The notes beneath the pieces were generated by a model. The model had not been told where the DNA came from. It saw nothing but the letters and a program-made list of their open reading frames with translations, and ran no database searches. Below, in pieces: positions 23,557 to 60,354 of a DNA stretch of 64,000 bases. Each line of letters starts with the position of its first letter. The stretch's first letter is position 1. The stretch comes from Tautonia marina (lineage in GTDB: Bacteria; Planctomycetota; Planctomycetia; Isosphaerales; Isosphaeraceae), in contig NZ_WEZF01000002.1 in NCBI RefSeq assembly GCF_009177065.1, forward strand, positions 62,001 through 126,000, in the 5' to 3' direction. A program made the position numbers and the translations under genes.

Positions 23557-24918
23557 TTACGGGCACGTTAGGCACGTGGGCACCACAACGGGAACCATCG
23601 AGGTGACGGTCACTGGAACCGGGCGAGCCACCACACGAGGCACACAACGCTGAACCGTGACCGGGACCTGTTCTTCCACCAGGAACGGAACTTGCCGCTC
23701 AGCCGTTTCGGCGACATAGCGGACCTGACGGACAGGAATGCGTTCGACCCGTTCCTCGGTCACATAACGGCAGGTGGTCACCGGCACGCGTTCCACACGT
23801 TCCTCGGCCACCATCCGGGTCATCTGAACCTGATACGGCTCAACCCGTTCCTCGGTCACATAGCGGCAGGTGGTCACCGGCACGCGTTCCACACGTTCCT
23901 CGGCCACCATCCGGGTCATTTGAACCTGATACGGCTCAACCCGTTCCTCGGTCACATAGCGGCAGGTGGTCACCGGCACGCGTTCCACACGCTCCTCGGC
24001 CACCATCCGAGTTGTTTGCACTGGCACCTGTCGCACGCGGGTTTCGGCCACGTAAGAGGTTTCCGAAACCGTCCGTACGACCGGGCGGGAGACAAACACC
24101 CGCCGCGAAACGGTACGGGGAGGGCACTGGACCGCCACGGTTGCAAAGGCCTTCCTCTTGTGATGAAGACACCCCAGCAACCCATGAGGACGAGAACACG
24201 GATCCACCGGAACCGGCACGCGACGCTGGACGATCGGTCCGGGGACCACCTCCATCTGCGTCTCGAACGCTCCGCATTCCTGGACCACCTCACGTTGTGT
24301 GACAACCGGTCGCATGACCCGGTACGTCTGCTCGACCATCGAGGTCTCGACGACCGGACGCATGACCGTATAGCGTCGCTCACGCTCAGCCGTTTCGATC
24401 ACCGGACGCATGACCTGATAACGCCGCTCGCGTTGCTGGGTCTCGACGACCGGACGCATGACCGTATAGCGTCGCTCACGCTCAGCCGTTTCGATCACCG
24501 GACGCATGACCTGATAACGCCGCTCGCGTTGCTGGGTCTCGACGACCGGACGCATCACGGTAAACCGTCGCTCATGCTCGGCCGTCTCGTACACCGGCCG
24601 TGTCACCTGAAAGCGCCGTTCCTGCTCGACGGTTTCCACCACGGGGCGCATCACCTGGTACTGCTCGGTCCGGTAGGCCGTGCGAAACCGGGTCTGCATG
24701 ACCGTGGTGGGCTGGACCTCGTAGACCGTCTCGTAAACGGTCTGCATCACCGTCTCATATCGCGGTGCCATCGCCACGACGTCAATCGTCTGAACCACGG
24801 GCGCGGCACAGATCCGATAGGAAGCGGCACCACAATACGTGGCCTTCGCCGGAGCCGTCGTCCCCAGTACGAGCAGGGCCAGCGCGGCGAGCCGCGTCAA
24901 TCCCTGACTCTTTAACAT
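23557..24918 (-). CDS. Secreted VMRPV/YTV-type repeat protein, Cys-rich
   Basis: 453 aa from ATG 24918, with GGAGGTAAC just upstream. A signal peptide MLKSQGLTRLAALALLVLG...AKA is followed by repeat modules. The N-terminal half has about eight 16-residue units of the form [YF]xVMRPVxETxxRERR (~75-215). The centre is a Cys/His linker with CSRPHGLLGCLHHKR. The C-terminal half has 32-residue units built on YVTEERVEPYQV and MVAEERVERVPVTTCR (~300-410). The tail ends PTCLTCP. Planctomycetes encode large extracellular proteins with 'YTV' repeats proposed to form the proteinaceous cell wall; the YTVMRPV units here look related, though this is a resemblance I could not test. The Cys residues would allow disulfide cross-linking. 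Monocistronic, with a hairpin terminator beyond the stop. Confidence 0.75.
   Translation of the reverse strand: MLKSQGLTRLAALALLVLGTTAPAKATYCGAASYRICAAPVVQTIDVVAMAPRYETVMQTVYETVYEVQPTTVMQTRFRTAYRTEQYQVMRPVVETVEQERRFQVTRPVYETAEHERRFTVMRPVVETQQRERRYQVMRPVIETAERERRYTVMRPVVETQQRERRYQVMRPVIETAERERRYTVMRPVVETSMVEQTYRVMRPVVTQREVVQECGAFETQMEVVPGPIVQRRVPVPVDPCSRPHGLLGCLHHKRKAFATVAVQCPPRTVSRRVFVSRPVVRTVSETSYVAETRVRQVPVQTTRMVAEERVERVPVTTCRYVTEERVEPYQVQMTRMVAEERVERVPVTTCRYVTEERVEPYQVQMTRMVAEERVERVPVTTCRYVTEERVERIPVRQVRYVAETAERQVPFLVEEQVPVTVQRCVPRVVARPVPVTVTSMVPVVVPTCLTCP
23751..24016 (-). repeat. 96-bp in-frame tandem repeats (C-terminal module)
   Basis: Copies begin at 23751, 23847 and 23943 (exact 96-bp period; the third is partial). 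Adjacent copies differ by only a few bases. Each encodes the 32-residue EERVEPYQV/EERVERVPV unit. Confidence 0.9.
24361..24552 (-). repeat. 96-bp in-frame tandem repeats (VMRPV module)
   Basis: Two nearly identical 96-bp copies begin at 24361 and 24457; more diverged copies continue to about 24700. Each encodes two 16-residue VMRPV-x-ET-x-RERRY units. Confidence 0.9.
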
Positions 24919-25680
24919 GATTGTTACCTCCGAGCCGCCTGGCGGCTCTCCTCGCTGGTGCATCACTTAGTCGGCAAGACTCTGGTGCGATCGGAGAATC
25001 GGAACCATCCCTGGAGGATGTCTCCGCTCGCTCTCGACCAACGCTCCCCCGAATTCCTTCGGTACGATGCGATGATCGGATCGAACTCTCCAAGCCAATA
25101 TAACATGGGCAACTTGGATCGTCGGGAGAAAACACCTCGTTCGAACCACCCCTAACCCCTACAGGCCGCACATTTTCCCCATTCTTCGGAGTGTTGCGGT
25201 CCTGTTTCGGACTCCAGGGCAGTGAAGGAAGTAATTGGCTGGGGGAGCAATCCGAAGGATCAGCCTCGGCCCAGCACCTTAGGATGGAACGCAATCCGGA
25301 TGCCCGAGCTGCCTCCCCACCACACCGTCATTTCCGATCTTCATGCGGAAGAATGGGTTCAGTCGAATCCGTTGAATCGAATTGGCTCCTCAATCGATTC
25401 AACCGATCCCAGTTCGTGTCGTTCTTACAAGAACGAGCCCCGATCCATCACCTCAATGCAAATCACGCTCCTCGATCAGAGCCCAACGCGACGTCGATCG
25501 CGCCAGGATCGTTGAGCAACGCAATTCCAAGTGGACCGCACTTTTTCAAGATGTATTGAAACCCGTCTTCCAAAGCTCGATTTTCTGCTTTATACTGCGG
25601 GGTGATGACAATGCCCGCATACCAGCGATCTGCTCCGGTCTCTCCGATGAGGGAGAGCAACTTCAGAAGGGGGCGATGCG
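24919..25680. other. Long intergenic region, no confident gene
   Basis: 762 bases between two divergent genes. It should hold the promoters of both. A GAGCCGC-CTG-GCGGCTC hairpin (24932-24948) sits directly before the ribosome binding site of the repeat-protein gene. Base composition is less GC-rich and codon-like periodicity is weak. One short minus-strand frame (25463-25660) is listed separately as doubtful. Confidence 0.5.
25463..25660 (-). CDS. Doubtful small ORF, no recognised family
   Basis: 65 codons from a TTG at 25660, with the frame remaining open further upstream. The translation (GADRWYAGIVITPQY, then LEDGFQYILKKCGPLGIALL) has a balanced composition unlike the Arg/Pro/Ser-rich shadow frames of this genome, which is the only reason to list it. 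There is no good ribosome binding site, and an extended version would overlap the start of the divergent gene at 25681. It could be a remnant of a longer gene. Confidence 0.2.
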   Translation of the reverse strand: MLSLIGETGADRWYAGIVITPQYKAENRALEDGFQYILKKCGPLGIALLNDPGAIDVALGSDRGA

Positions 25681-50891: not shown

Positions 50892-51311
50892 GTGGGCAAG
50901 AAGTTATATGTCGGTAACCTGACCTTCAAGGTCGACAGCTCCGAGCTCGAGCAGCTGTTTTCGCAGTACGGCACCGTCCAGAGTGCCCAGGTCATCCAGG
51001 ACCGCGACACCGGCCGCAGCAAGGGCTTCGGCTTCGTCGAGATGGACACCGATGAGCAGGCTCAGGCCGCCATCGACGGCTTGCACGATTACGATTACGG
51101 TGGTCGTCGCCTGACCGTCAACGAAGCCCGTCCTCGCGAGGATCGAGGCGGCGGCGGTGGTCGTGGCGGCTACGGTGGCGGCGGCGGCGGTGGTCGTGGC
51201 GGCTACGGTGGCGGCGGCGGCGGTGGTCGTGGCGGCTACGGTGGCGGCGGCGGCGGTGGTGGTTTCAGCGGCGGTCGTTACGGCGGCGGCGGCGGTGGTG
51301 GTCGGTATTAA
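50892..51311 (+). CDS. Glycine-rich RRM RNA-binding protein 1
   Basis: 139 aa from GTG 50892, with AGGAG seven bases upstream; the in-frame ATG 50874 would add six residues, but the paralogue aligns at GTG. One RRM covers residues 1-82: RNP2 LYVGNL (~5-10), RNP1 KGFGFVEM (~44-51), and the aromatic residues for RNA stacking are present. The tail is Gly/Arg/Tyr-rich (RGGY repeats, ~85-139), as in RNA-chaperone-like proteins. The same layout occurs in cyanobacterial Rbp proteins, several of which are cold-induced. It probably binds single-stranded RNA and remodels mRNA. The gene has its own leader and hairpin terminator. It is a close paralogue of the gene at 52542. Confidence 0.92.
   Translation: MGKKLYVGNLTFKVDSSELEQLFSQYGTVQSAQVIQDRDTGRSKGFGFVEMDTDEQAQAAIDGLHDYDYGGRRLTVNEARPREDRGGGGGRGGYGGGGGGGRGGYGGGGGGGRGGYGGGGGGGGFSGGRYGGGGGGGRY
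51162..51260 (+). repeat. 33-bp tandem repeats in RRM 1 tail
   Basis: Three copies of a 33-base unit begin at 51162, 51195 and 51228, each coding RGGYGGGGGGG. They are internal to the RRM 1 coding region and the likely site of replication slippage. Confidence 0.9.
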
Positions 51312-52541: not shown

Positions 52542-52865
52542 TTGTCAAAGAAGCTCTACGTCGGCAACCTGAGCTACCAGGTTGACGATTCTTCTCTCGA
52601 AACCCTCTTCGCTCATTTCGGCTCGGTTCAGAGCGCCCAGGTGATCCAGGATCGCGACACCGGCCGAAGCAAAGGCTTCGGCTTCGTCGAGATGGACACC
52701 GAGAACGAAGCGCAAGCCGCAATTGATGGCCTGCACGATTACGAATACGGTGGTCGCCGTCTGACCGTCAATGAAGCCAAGCCCCGAGAGCCCCGCACCG
52801 GTGGCGGTGGTCGTGGCGGCTACGGTGGCGGCGGCGGATACGGTGGTGGCGGTCGCCGCTACTGA
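52542..52865 (+). CDS. Glycine-rich RRM RNA-binding protein 2
   Basis: 107 aa from TTG 52542, with GGGGTGG about four bases upstream. One RRM (KKLYVGNLSYQVDD, RNP2; SKGFGFVEMDTEN, RNP1) is followed by a shorter Gly/Arg tail (GGGGRGGYGGGGGYGGGGRRY). The RRM is about 80% identical to that of the gene at 50892, including the run SAQVIQDRDTGRSKGFGFVEMDT (~31-53). It is likely a recent tandem duplicate with the same RNA-chaperone role. Using TTG as start fits the paralogue's GTG; no ATG is available in frame nearby. The hairpin at 52949 terminates it. Confidence 0.9.
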   Translation: MSKKLYVGNLSYQVDDSSLETLFAHFGSVQSAQVIQDRDTGRSKGFGFVEMDTENEAQAAIDGLHDYEYGGRRLTVNEAKPREPRTGGGGRGGYGGGGGYGGGGRRY

Positions 52866-57807: not shown

Positions 57808-60354
57808 GTGCGCGTCGACCCGAACCGAGCCCCTGCCCTCGCCCTTTGGTTCGTCGCGATGCTCGCGATCGCGGGCTCGCCCTACGGTGCGAACGCTCAA
57901 GGTCCCGCCGCTCCGGGCGGCGCATTCCAACGGGGAGCCCCGCCCGCGGCTGGCGTTGGTGGTCCCGCGGGTGGGCCCGCCGGCGGTCAGGCGGCCGGCC
58001 AGGGCGGCTATGGGCCTCCCGGTGCCTCAGGTGGCTATGGGCCTCCCGGTGCCTCAGGTGGCTTCGGACAGCCCGGCTTTCCCGGACAGCCCGGTCTTCC
58101 GGGACAGCCTGGCCCCTCGTCCGAGGATGCCGGTGCGACCACTCGCGAAGCCCCGGTCGATCTCGATGCCGTTCCGGTCGATACCGCTCCGCTGGCTCGC
58201 TACATCCCGGAAAATGCGTACGGAGCCTTTCTTGAATTCAACGGCCTGAACGCCGCGGCCGACGCCTGGCAAGGGTCCTCGGCTTATGCCCTGCTCAACG
58301 AGACGAGCCTTGGCGAAATGCTCCGCGAACTGATCGCTCAGTTCATCGAGGCCGCTCCCAACGCTCCGGCCGGGGTCATGACCGGCCCCGAAGTGGCTGC
58401 CGTGCTGGAACACCTCGCCCGGCATGGGCTCGTGATCGCCTCGCCCCAGAACGCGGAAAACGAGGTGTCCGAGACGATCCTCGTTCTTCGAGGCGCCGCG
58501 CACCGAGAGGTCCGTCCCCTTTTCGGCAAGCTCATCGGCACCATCGCCGCCGAAGGCGCCAATCCGCAGGTGGTTAGCAAAACCGGTGATCGCCGTGTCG
58601 TCGTCATGGACACCCCACCCAAGGCAATGGAAAGGGTGAATGAATGGGTCTGGTGGATCGAAGGAGACGACCTCGTGTTTGTCTTCAACGGCCCCGATGC
58701 CGCCGACCAGATTATTTCGGTCATCGACGGCCAAGCTCCGAACGCCGAGAACGACCCCGTGCGTCAGCAACTGATGGCCGTCGAGAATGGGTTTCGCCCC
58801 CTTGCCGTCGGCTCGCTCCGGTTCGATCGTCCCGGAGCCGACGAGGCCGAACGCTCGATGGTCGAGGCAAATGGTCTGACCCGCATTGATCTCCGGTGGG
58901 GATTCGACGGCTCGGATTCCCTGACGGTCGTGGGCCTGGAAGCTCCGGCCCCCCGTAAAGGGTTCATGACCATTTTCGATCAACCAAGCATCGCCATGAG
59001 CGAGCTGCCGCCGATCCCTCGTGATGTCGAGAACCTGACCATCCTTTCGGTCAATCCCTCGGGAATGTACGATGCGTTGATCGAATTCGCCGATCAGTCG
59101 TTTCCCCCGCTCGCTGCGCCGCTGCGAGCCTTCGAGGAATCCGTCCGCACGCGCGGACGGCTCGAATTCCGAGACGAGGTCCTCTCCGAACTCGGCCCGA
59201 AGATCGCCGCCTACACCTTGCCGAAGCCCGCCTCTCAGCCGGCCTCGGGCAACCCTCTGGCCGGCATCATGAACGCCCTCGGCGGGCTCGGCCTTCCCCA
59301 GTTCGTCGTGGCGATCGAGCTGCAAAACGGCTCGGCATTCACCAGCAAACTCGACGGAATGATCCTCGCCATCAATGATCAACTCGCCGAGCTGCTACCG
59401 CCTCCCCCCCCACCTGCCGAAGAAGCCAATCCCGGGGCCTTTGCCCCCGGCGGTCAGCAAGGCCGACAGGGAGGAGGTCCTCCCGGTCAACCCGGCGGCG
59501 ACCGGAACCGGGAAGAACCCCCCGAGCCTCCGAAGTTCTCGATGACCCTGGCCGAACCCCGAACCTATTTGCTCCGGCTTCCCGAGGGCCTCTACGGTCT
59601 GACCGGGTATCAGCCGACCATCACGATGGGACAAAACCATCTCATCTTCGCCTCGAATCCGGTGGCGGCCCGTCAATGCCGAGAGCTGGAACAGGCCGAA
59701 GGCTCGGAACGCTGGTCACCCCCCGCCGACCTCGCCGGTCGCTTGCCTGGTAACTTGACCATGCTCGTGGTCAATGATCCCAGCCAGTCCCTTCCCGCGT
59801 CCATCGCCGGATTACCTGCGTCCCTGAACGCCGCGATGGCCTCCGCCGCCTCAATGGCCGACCCTGGTGGACCCTCGGGTGGTGCCGCAGCAGAGATGGG
59901 CGAGCCCCAGCGCGGCGGCATGCGATCCGGCCCCGGTGGCCCTCCCGGCGCGAGTGGCTTCCCTGGAGAACCCGGCATCAGTCCTCCTCCCGGTGCGAGC
60001 GGCTTCCAGGGTCAGCCCGGAGACATTCCTCCTCCCGGCGCGAGCGGCTTCCAGGGTCAACCAGGCGGCCCCGGATATGGAGGAGCTCCAGGAATGGCCT
60101 CACCTCCAGGCGCTCCCGGGGCTTCTCAGAATCAAGCCGGCCCGACCACGATCCGTTTGGCCCCGTCGTTGCTTCCTTCTCCCGACTCCCTCCGACGCTA
60201 CCTGGAATCCGCCGTCTATTCGGTTTCGGCCGATGACGCCGGCATCCGGATCGAGGCTCGGGAAACCCTGCCCGGTCAGTGGAGCCTGGGGGGCCTGGGC
60301 TCCGGCGCCTCGCTTTCACTCCCGGTTTCGATTGCCCCAGGCGGTCGGAATTAA
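57808..60354 (+). CDS. Large exported protein with collagen-like Gly-X-Y tracts
   Basis: 848 aa from GTG 57808 (AAAGGA eight bases upstream), which opens a signal peptide (ALALWFVAMLAIAGSPYGANAQ). Residues ~30-110 are a Gly/Pro tract of collagen-like GXY type (GPPGASGGY, then GQPGFPGQPGLPGQPGPS). The centre (~130-640) is a folded region of unrecognised family containing LARYIPENAYGAFLEFNGL and repeated small beta segments. A second collagen-like tract (~705-780: GASGFQGQPG units) precedes a folded C-terminus. Planctomycete genomes carry many such unknown exported proteins. It may be a structural or adhesive surface component. Both tracts contain near-exact DNA repeats, so length variation between strains is likely. 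Confidence 0.8.
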   Translation: MRVDPNRAPALALWFVAMLAIAGSPYGANAQGPAAPGGAFQRGAPPAAGVGGPAGGPAGGQAAGQGGYGPPGASGGYGPPGASGGFGQPGFPGQPGLPGQPGPSSEDAGATTREAPVDLDAVPVDTAPLARYIPENAYGAFLEFNGLNAAADAWQGSSAYALLNETSLGEMLRELIAQFIEAAPNAPAGVMTGPEVAAVLEHLARHGLVIASPQNAENEVSETILVLRGAAHREVRPLFGKLIGTIAAEGANPQVVSKTGDRRVVVMDTPPKAMERVNEWVWWIEGDDLVFVFNGPDAADQIISVIDGQAPNAENDPVRQQLMAVENGFRPLAVGSLRFDRPGADEAERSMVEANGLTRIDLRWGFDGSDSLTVVGLEAPAPRKGFMTIFDQPSIAMSELPPIPRDVENLTILSVNPSGMYDALIEFADQSFPPLAAPLRAFEESVRTRGRLEFRDEVLSELGPKIAAYTLPKPASQPASGNPLAGIMNALGGLGLPQFVVAIELQNGSAFTSKLDGMILAINDQLAELLPPPPPPAEEANPGAFAPGGQQGRQGGGPPGQPGGDRNREEPPEPPKFSMTLAEPRTYLLRLPEGLYGLTGYQPTITMGQNHLIFASNPVAARQCRELEQAEGSERWSPPADLAGRLPGNLTMLVVNDPSQSLPASIAGLPASLNAAMASAASMADPGGPSGGAAAEMGEPQRGGMRSGPGGPPGASGFPGEPGISPPPGASGFQGQPGDIPPPGASGFQGQPGGPGYGGAPGMASPPGAPGASQNQAGPTTIRLAPSLLPSPDSLRRYLESAVYSVSADDAGIRIEARETLPGQWSLGGLGSGASLSLPVSIAPGGRN
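58006..58059 (+). repeat. 27-bp tandem duplication (collagen-like tract 1)
   Basis: Two identical 27-base units (58006-58032 and 58033-58059), each coding GYGPPGASG. Confidence 0.9.
59938..60072 (+). repeat. 45-bp tandem repeats (collagen-like tract 2)
   Basis: Three 45-base units begin at 59938, 59983 and 60028, each coding a variant of PPGASGFQGQPG. The second and third differ at only a few positions before the end of the unit. Confidence 0.85.

What the first reader, a model, noticed from the sequence alone, without database searches (positions are those of the whole stretch)
23557..24918. Secreted 96-bp-repeat protein, possible minor member of the planctomycete YTV/wall-protein class
The protein alternates 16-residue VMRPV-ET-RERRY units with 32-residue EERVxPYQV/VTTCR units, at nearly exact 96-bp DNA repeats in two separate blocks. 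It has a signal peptide and many Cys. Known: planctomycetes have proteinaceous walls with YTV-repeat proteins. The shared period of two unlike repeats (96 bp in both) suggests coordinated selection on repeat length.
Basis: partly seen in the sequence, partly recalled or inferred. Interest (0 to 1): 0.5.

Follow-up and report, generated by a model that had tools for sequence, protein, structure and literature searches.

The report
Planctomycete wall protein, two matched arms
This gene encodes a secreted protein of the planctomycete YTV cell-wall family, and comparison with its relatives suggests that its two repeat blocks are the two arms of one very long folded-back ribbon, kept matched in repeat size and, mostly, in repeat number.

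Summary
The gene (minus strand, 24918 to 23557, 453 aa) carries two arrays of near-exact 96-bp repeats. They lie in separate halves, and both are doublets of a 16-residue unit. Pfam YTV (PF07639) matches at E 2.7e-38. The nearest named relative is Tautonia sociabilis (Isosphaeraceae), and 34 of 36 family genomes hold an orthologue.

The new result is that the two halves evolve as coupled arms. In Isosphaeraceae the arm lengths differ by a fixed +15 residues in 27 of 34 orthologues, at three lengths, and in 12 of 12 assemblies of 60 contigs or fewer. The period (28, 30 or 32) agrees between arms in 150 of 156 proteins. In nine relatives mixing 14- and 16-residue units, unit order agrees in an antiparallel register at 73 of 75 boundaries (shuffles 41 +/- 5). 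The patterns are nearly palindromic, so a parallel register fits almost as well (76 of 81); order does not settle direction. AlphaFold2 models of two distant members both give an antiparallel hairpin in one register, at low confidence (pTM 0.22-0.23). One complete genome breaks the equal-number rule.

The gene is an ordinary member of a known family. I found the arm coupling described in none of my literature searches.

The parts
23557..24918 (-). CDS of the YTV-family secreted repeat protein, 453 aa (ATG at 24918-24916, stop 23559-23557)
   Evidence: PF07639 E 2.7e-38
24927..24931 (-). Shine-Dalgarno-like GGAGG 8 bases before the ATG
   Evidence: read from the sequence
24841..24918 (-). signal peptide, residues 1-26, AKA^TY
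   Evidence: by eye: basic N-region, hydrophobic core, A-x-A site; similar in the congeners
24244..24780 (-). N arm, residues 47-225: 16-residue YxVMRPV units, 32-residue doublets (the TRF array 24343-24618 lies inside)
   Evidence: YTV profile 146 bits on the N-terminal part alone; AF2 strands 47-109 and 141-225
24118..24243 (-). spacer = predicted hairpin tip, residues 226-267, not repetitive; 9-32 residues between profile anchors in Isosphaeraceae orthologues
23581..24117 (-). C arm, residues 268-446: 16-residue EERV/PVTTCRYV units, 32-residue doublets (the TRF array 23747-24009 lies inside)
   Evidence: AF2 strands 268-352 and 384-446; the equivalent arm of relative L052 matches PF07639 at 37 bits
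23560..23580 (-). C-terminal tail, residues 447-453 (PTCLTCP)
   Evidence: similar in most of the 20 aligned family members

Best explanation
The gene encodes a secreted structural protein of the planctomycete cell envelope, a YTV-family (PF07639) wall protein. After export the chain folds back on itself. The N-terminal array (residues 47-225) and the C-terminal array (268-446) are the two strands of one antiparallel two-stranded beta ribbon about 180 residues (roughly 60 nm) long, with the spacer as the turn. Units of one arm lie opposite units of the other. A change of unit length or number in one arm puts the arms out of step unless the other arm changes too, so both arrays keep the same period and, mostly, matched length, even though recombination keeps copying repeats within each array. 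Ribbons of many copies then presumably lie side by side and are fixed by cysteines into the SDS-resistant wall. Shown here: family membership, two-arm architecture, coupling of period, length and order of unit lengths, within-gene homogenisation. Predicted only (AF2): the hairpin, its antiparallel direction and register. Inferred: pairing within one chain, lateral assembly, cross-linking, wall location of this particular protein.
For: YTV profile, E 2.7e-38; the C-terminal arm of a distant relative also passes the YTV cut-off, so both arms are YTV-derived. AF2 of the window protein: strands 47-109/384-446 and 141-225/268-352, all i+j = 493. AF2 of distant relative L095: six strands, all i+j = 444, arms of 152 and 152 residues. 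Both give the same register (+5) against homologous tip landmarks despite spacings of 56 and 39. Isosphaeraceae: C minus N arm length is exactly +15 in 27 of 34 orthologues (one truncated row dropped), at 179/194, 195/210 and 211/226; permutation mean 18.1, 0 of 20000 reach 27; 12 of 12 in assemblies of 60 contigs or fewer. Another subfamily: +16/+16 (L201) and +32/+32 (L194) among 12 proteins. Best double period equal in both arms: 32/32 in 142, 30/30 in 4, 28/28 in 4 of 156 proteins, 6 discordant. Order of 14/16-residue units: one antiparallel register fits 73 of 75 boundaries in 9 genes, shuffles 41.0 +/- 5.3, maximum 59 of 5000 trials. Within-gene homogenisation: the two complete window C-arm 96-bp units are 97.9% identical to each other but 75-92% to the matching units of congeners. 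YTV proteins are major wall components in Gemmata and top-scoring wall proteins in Tuwongella (PMC5287468, PMC8567305, passages read).
Against: Direction is not proven by unit order. The unit-length patterns are nearly palindromic, and a parallel register chosen freely fits 76 of 81 boundaries (anchored at the C-arm outer end) or 69 of 81 (anchored at the N-arm outer end), against 73 of 75 antiparallel; with the offset free for each gene the parallel order does as well (69 against 67 hits in 8 genes; good shifted parallel fits also). My earlier parallel controls (38 of 67 and 31 of 49) held the offset fixed and were unfair. Both AF2 models have low global confidence (pTM 0.23 and 0.22, mean pLDDT about 65), and AF2 may favour long hairpins for such sequences. 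Seven of 34 Isosphaeraceae orthologues break the +15 rule, including the closest relative G003 (one 32-aa unit fewer in the C arm); all seven are in assemblies of 70-620 contigs, so repeat collapse is suspected but not shown. In the complete genome G415 (L227) the C arm has about four more units than the N arm. L229, L230 and L232 (20-30 contigs) also have unequal arms. Cysteines do not face each other in the AF2 register (2.2 per 1000 pairs at +5, among the lowest of the offsets scanned); charge pairing is inconclusive. The unit-order test cannot be read in the window protein itself, whose units are all 16 residues. Its wall location was not tested.
Confidence: 0.6

Rival explanations
1. Antiparallel N-arm to C-arm pairing, but between molecules: the chains are extended and the N arm of one pairs with the C arm of the next (domain-swapped dimer or open-ended fibre).
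For: Equal periods, matched lengths and matched unit order constrain N arm against C arm but do not say whether they belong to one chain. A wall polymer could well use swapped strands.
Against: Both single-chain AF2 models place the turn in the spacer in the same register, but multimers were not modelled. Landmarks flanking the tip keep a 54-residue spacing in the 28 proteins listed, which suits a defined turn.
Confidence: 0.18
2. N arm and C arm lie side by side in parallel, for example in neighbouring molecules stacked in one direction.
For: Parallel registers fit the order of 14/16-residue units at up to 76 of 81 boundaries, almost as well as the antiparallel one.
Against: The best parallel registers fit slightly fewer boundaries than the antiparallel one (94% and 85% against 97%). 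Both AF2 models are antiparallel. Within one chain a short spacer cannot bring long arms into parallel.
Confidence: 0.1
3. The arms do not pair. Each forms its own repeat structure (for example a beta-solenoid or an extended chain), and the shared period is inherited from a common ancestral repeat.
For: Both arms are recognisable as YTV repeats, so common descent is real; the parallel (same-order) fit is good, as an in-order copy would give.
Against: The two arms keep distinct consensus sequences across the 30- and 32-residue classes, so they had diverged before the period changed, yet they changed together. Linked length changes within Isosphaeraceae and in L194 and L201 are not expected from old common descent.
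Confidence: 0.08
4. Neutral tandem-repeat slippage or assembly artefacts, with no structural meaning.
For: Repeats are homogenised within each gene, and some draft assemblies disagree in copy number.
Against: Agreement is best in the most contiguous assemblies (12 of 12 at 60 contigs or fewer against 15 of 22 above; Fisher p 0.036). The reading frame and architecture are conserved between families.
Confidence: 0.04

Closest known systems
YTV-domain proteins of Planctomycetia (Pfam PF07639), including cell-wall YTV proteins of Gemmata obscuriglobus (PMC5287468), Tuwongella immobilis (PMC8567305) and the YTV protein in the essential gene set of Planctopirus limnophila (PMC10632474)
   Same: YTV profile, probable secretion signal, restriction to the class, 16-residue repeat units, two arrays around a conserved spacer (the last two seen in relatives here; the three named proteins themselves were not aligned)
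   Different: The window protein is Cys-poor for the family (12 Cys), and its C arm is too diverged for the Pfam profile. Arm coupling or a hairpin is not described in the passages that I read
Long two-stranded beta hairpins of pore-forming toxin stems (lysenin, epsilon toxin, CDTb pores) and phage tail or collar proteins
   Same: long antiparallel hairpins; weak structural matches only (best Z 3.3, rmsd 15.0 over 118 residues)
   Different: no meaningful sequence similarity, much shorter hairpins (general knowledge); the resemblance is only 'a long hairpin', not kinship
DUF6449 (PF20047)
   Same: the EERV arm alone scores 34.2 bits against a cut-off of 23.5; the whole protein 25 bits
   Different: I read this as a cross-hit of a V/E-rich repeat: it is partial (profile positions 74-111 of 152), and the whole-protein match is dominated by YTV

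Membership tests
YTV (PF07639) planctomycete wall proteins | Pfam YTV profile above its curated cut-off | tested here: met
   130.2 bits against 21, 5 stretches
YTV (PF07639) planctomycete wall proteins | restricted to class Planctomycetia | tested here: met
   Of 393 Planctomycetota genomes 101 match; 99 are same-class (own included) and 2 are weak single hits elsewhere in the phylum; 0 of 14 control genomes. Nearest named relative Tautonia sociabilis, class Planctomycetia
YTV (PF07639) planctomycete wall proteins | secretion signal | tested here: met
   by inspection only; no signal-peptide predictor was available
YTV (PF07639) planctomycete wall proteins | cysteine-rich | tested here: inconclusive
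   12 Cys in 453 aa, low for the family
YTV (PF07639) planctomycete wall proteins | present in the SDS-insoluble wall | not testable with these tools
   shown for relatives only (PMC5287468, PMC8567305, passages)
Antiparallel two-arm hairpin proposed here | arms of matched length and period | tested here: met
   window gene 179/194 by anchors, the family offset +15; 27 of 34 orthologues. A complete-genome exception exists in another family (L227)
Antiparallel two-arm hairpin proposed here | mirror (antiparallel) rather than parallel order of unit lengths | tested here: inconclusive
   antiparallel 73 of 75, best parallel 76 of 81 in 9 relatives; not readable in the window protein, whose units are uniform
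Antiparallel two-arm hairpin proposed here | predicted structure with constant i+j | tested here: inconclusive
   two AF2 models agree but pTM is 0.23 and 0.22
Solved long-hairpin folds (pore toxins, phage tails) | significant structural match | tested here: inconclusive
   Foldseek best E 1e-5 with TM about 0.1; VIA Z at most 3.3 on a low-confidence model; no E <= 0.001 for the second model

The most novel reading that the evidence does not exclude
The protein wall of Planctomycetia is built from giant two-stranded antiparallel beta ribbons. A ribbon's length is written genetically as a count of repeats in two matched arms of one gene, and the two arrays co-evolve in unit number, unit length and unit order like the halves of a zipper. 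This would be an architecture without a solved counterpart.
Probability: 0.4. Interest if true: 0.85.

Novelty: new member of a known kind. Interest (0 to 1): 0.62.

Why it matters
The make-up of the planctomycete wall has been discussed since the 1980s (references cited in PMC8567305). YTV proteins are among its main components where examined, and one is in the essential gene set of P. limnophila, yet no solved structure matched the family profile by sequence here. The coupled-arm rule gives the family a concrete fold hypothesis with checkable predictions: ribbon length from gene length, register, and the effect of unpaired against paired repeat deletions. It is also an unusual case in which tandem-repeat evolution in one half of a gene is tied to the other half. 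The window genome shows no transpeptidase (PF00905) match, while 10 of 14 controls do, which fits a wall carried by protein.

Tried and rejected
Alternation of two repeat kinds: rejected, the kinds occupy separate halves. Relation to solved structures by sequence: none. A viral source: no relative in viral contigs. Fold search: only weak matches to toxin stems and phage tail proteins, not meaningful at this model confidence. Cysteine-cysteine facing across the arms: not found at the AF2 register; charge and hydrophobic facing inconclusive.

Unit order as proof of antiparallel direction: tried and withdrawn. Searches seemed to reject the parallel order (38 of 67, 31 of 49), but that control kept the offset fixed. 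One search had already shown good parallel fits with a shifted offset, and searches confirm that parallel registers fit nearly as well.

First arm-length tests by motif search gave only moderate correlations because the anchors were inconsistent; replaced by profile anchors. In one search my unit pattern lost the tip-proximal unit in several proteins, giving false mismatches (L227, L228, L229, L231 scored 0-1); replaced by position-based tests. In one search two truncated duplicates (L208, L210) and a duplicate record (gc_L117) were in the list; removed. Searches stopped with script errors after printing part or all of their results; one search is used only as a guide, for the nine proteins it printed, and one search was replaced. 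Landmark test outside Isosphaeraceae: 23 of 45 measured proteins matched (permutation mean 4.2, maximum 15), but 87 proteins were skipped for lack of landmarks. No sigma-70-like promoter was found upstream. Gene neighbours (RNase R upstream, a convergent DUF362 gene downstream) are conserved within the genus but say nothing about function. Literature: eight searches listed no paper that, by title or abstract start, describes a hairpin or coupled arms in YTV proteins; the library lacks most subscription papers.

Full report
What is there. The frame on the minus strand from 24918 to 23557 encodes 453 residues. A GGAGG stands 8 bases before the ATG. The N-terminus reads as a Sec signal peptide by eye. 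Tandem Repeats Finder gives 96-bp arrays at 23747-24009 (98% matches) and 24343-24618 (91%), each also scored at 48 bp. Autocorrelation of the protein peaks at lags 32, 16 and 48 in both halves, far above shuffles. The two repeat kinds therefore do not alternate. One fills the N-terminal half and the other the C-terminal half, with a non-repetitive spacer between, and both share a 16-residue unit arranged as 32-residue doublets.

Family. Pfam YTV (PF07639) matches at E 2.7e-38, 130 bits against a cut-off of 21. The N half alone gives 146 bits. The C half alone gives none, but the C half of a distant relative (L052) passes the cut-off at 37 bits. So the two 'unlike' repeats are both YTV-derived, and the C half has drifted. 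The nearest named relative is Tautonia sociabilis, Isosphaeraceae (83%). The protein search finds relatives in 39 of 40 related genomes, and a close orthologue at E <= 1e-60 in 34 of 36 genomes of the family. In the phylum, 101 of 393 genomes hold YTV: 99 of the same class and two weak single hits elsewhere. The window genome holds two further YTV-like genes, on C22 (792-aa frame) and C15 (551-aa frame, below the cut-off).

Known biology (papers; only the passages found were read). YTV proteins were the major constituents of SDS-boiled walls of Gemmata obscuriglobus (PMC5287468). Two Cys-rich YTV proteins scored highest in the wall preparation of Tuwongella immobilis and were found only in its SDS fraction (PMC8567305). 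A YTV protein belongs to the essential gene set of Planctopirus limnophila (PMC10632474). None of these passages describes a fold. No Protein Data Bank sequence matches the family profile.

The hairpin prediction. AlphaFold2 on the window protein with 46 sequences gives strands 47-109, 141-225, 268-352 and 384-446, besides two short ones at 229-236 and 257-264. They mirror exactly at i+j = 493: the N half against the C half, 179 residues against 179, turning in the spacer. A second prediction, for the distant Cys-rich relative L095 with 21 sequences, gives 47-198/246-397, 201-209/235-243 and 213-219/225-231, all at i+j = 444. Against two homologous landmarks at the tip, both models have the same register, +5, although the landmark spacing is 56 in one and 39 in the other. 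The second alignment contained the window protein and some of the same relatives, so the two are not fully independent. Global confidence is low (pTM 0.23 and 0.22).

Test 1, arm length. I measured the arms of 35 Isosphaeraceae orthologues with profile anchors. Five family genomes were left out (G012 without a match, G423 without one at 1e-60, G024 and G421 with a truncated frame, G430 without a locus). One measured row, L044, is cut by a contig end and was dropped. C arm minus N arm is exactly +15 in 27 of 34. This occurs at three lengths: 211/226 in 21, 179/194 in 4 and 195/210 in 2. Permuting gives 18.1 +/- 1.9, and 0 of 20000 reach 27. Permutation ignores kinship: the 179/194 set is one genus plus one other genome, the 195/210 set one genus. 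All 12 in assemblies of 60 contigs or fewer obey the rule, against 15 of 22 in more fragmented ones (Fisher p 0.036), as expected if short reads collapse near-identical 96-bp repeats; that cause is inferred. The closest relative, G003, is one of the exceptions. In another subfamily (12 proteins aligned) one member has +16 in both arms and another +32 in both arms. A cruder landmark test outside Isosphaeraceae agrees in 23 of 45 measured proteins (permutation mean 4.2, maximum 15), with 87 skipped.

Test 2, unit length. In 156 distinct YTV proteins (of 187 collected, some the same gene under two names) the best double period of the two arms is 32/32 in 142, 30/30 in 4 and 28/28 in 4. Six are discordant: two cut by contig ends (L044, L085), one with a broken frame (L071), two with almost no signal in the C arm (L174, L176), and one mixed (L117). 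Twenty further fetches, some repeating earlier genes, gave 13 of 32/32, 6 of 30/30 and one 32/30, L239, the same gene as L117. The window genome's own C15 paralogue is 28/28 while the window protein is 32/32.

Test 3, order of unit lengths. Some relatives mix 14- and 16-residue units. In nine such genes, measured outward from the tip, one common antiparallel register matches 73 of 75 unit boundaries; shuffled C-arm orders give 41.0 +/- 5.3, maximum 59 in 5000. An earlier version with eight genes gave 65 of 67, shuffles 35.0 +/- 5.2, and one gene per pattern gave 47 of 49. So the two arms carry the same pattern of long and short units. In L197 both arms also carry a 76-residue block of five units three times. 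I first took this as proof of mirror order. It is not: the patterns are nearly palindromic, and the best common parallel registers match 76 of 81 or 69 of 81 boundaries, while with offsets free for each gene the two directions tie. The antiparallel direction therefore rests on AF2, with only a slight preference from unit order. For the strictly alternating genes only the phase is tested.

What goes against it. L227 comes from a one-contig genome and its C arm is about four units longer than its N arm, so equal number is a strong tendency, not a law; L229, L230 and L232, from assemblies of 20-30 contigs, are unequal too. Cysteines rarely face each other in the AF2 register, so covalent bonds between the arms of one molecule are not supported; if cysteines cross-link, it may be between molecules. 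The data do not separate an intramolecular hairpin from a domain-swapped pairing.

Mechanism. Units within each array are homogenised by recombination: the two complete C-arm units of the window gene are 97.9% identical to each other, 89.6-91.7% to the matching unit of G003 and 75-76% to the matching units of G001 and G002. Copy number is therefore labile, yet the two arrays mostly stay matched. The simplest reading is selection for two arms that must lie side by side in register. At about 0.33 nm per residue (general knowledge) the window ribbon would be about 60 nm long. Lateral packing into the wall is inferred. The genome has no PF00905 transpeptidase match and one Mur-ligase-type match of unknown role.

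Verdict. The gene is a conserved YTV-family gene, a known kind, most likely for a wall protein. Its repeat layout shows a family-wide tendency, two arms coupled in period, length and unit order, that I did not find described in the searches listed.

Noticed in passing
window 23692-24915, + strand: A 407-codon TTG-started antisense frame is open along most of the YTV gene, rich in HRHAFH/LGHH repeats; most likely a by-product of codon use in the repeats.
   Followed up: no
window genome G000:C15 about 58.6-59.6 kb (L140) and G000:C22 37.3-39.1 kb (L139): Two further YTV-type proteins of the same genome: one with 28-residue periods in both halves, one of 761 aa with its PG tip motif at 373; same two-arm layout, different unit length.
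   Followed up: partly
L083, L084, L086, L109 (search for related loci): Contigs titled Candidatus Kuenenia stuttgartiensis encode YTV proteins like those of Planctomycetia (L083, L084 and L086 resemble Isosphaeraceae ones); they look like mislabelled or misbinned metagenome records.
   Followed up: no
L197 (G033:C1 about 4.37 Mb) and G318:C1:817305-818420 (L170): L197's C-terminus departs abruptly from the family ending, as after a frameshift; the L170 match holds an in-frame TAA. Possible pseudogenes or sequencing errors.
   Followed up: no
window 51147-51295, 52805-52852: Tandem repeats of 33 and 18 bp with GGC/GGT/CGT-rich units, which could encode Gly/Arg/Tyr-rich stretches.
   Followed up: no
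window 58006-58114 and 59941-60062: Tandem repeats of 27 and 45 bp in units that could encode Gly/Pro-rich stretches (GYGPPGASG-like).
   Followed up: no
window 23740-24009: The C arm alone passes the Pfam cut-off of DUF6449 (34.2 against 23.5 bits), probably a composition-driven cross-hit that could mislead automatic annotation.
   Followed up: partly
whole genome G000: No PF00905 transpeptidase match at 98% completeness, while 10 of 14 control genomes match; only one Mur_ligase_M match.
   Followed up: partly
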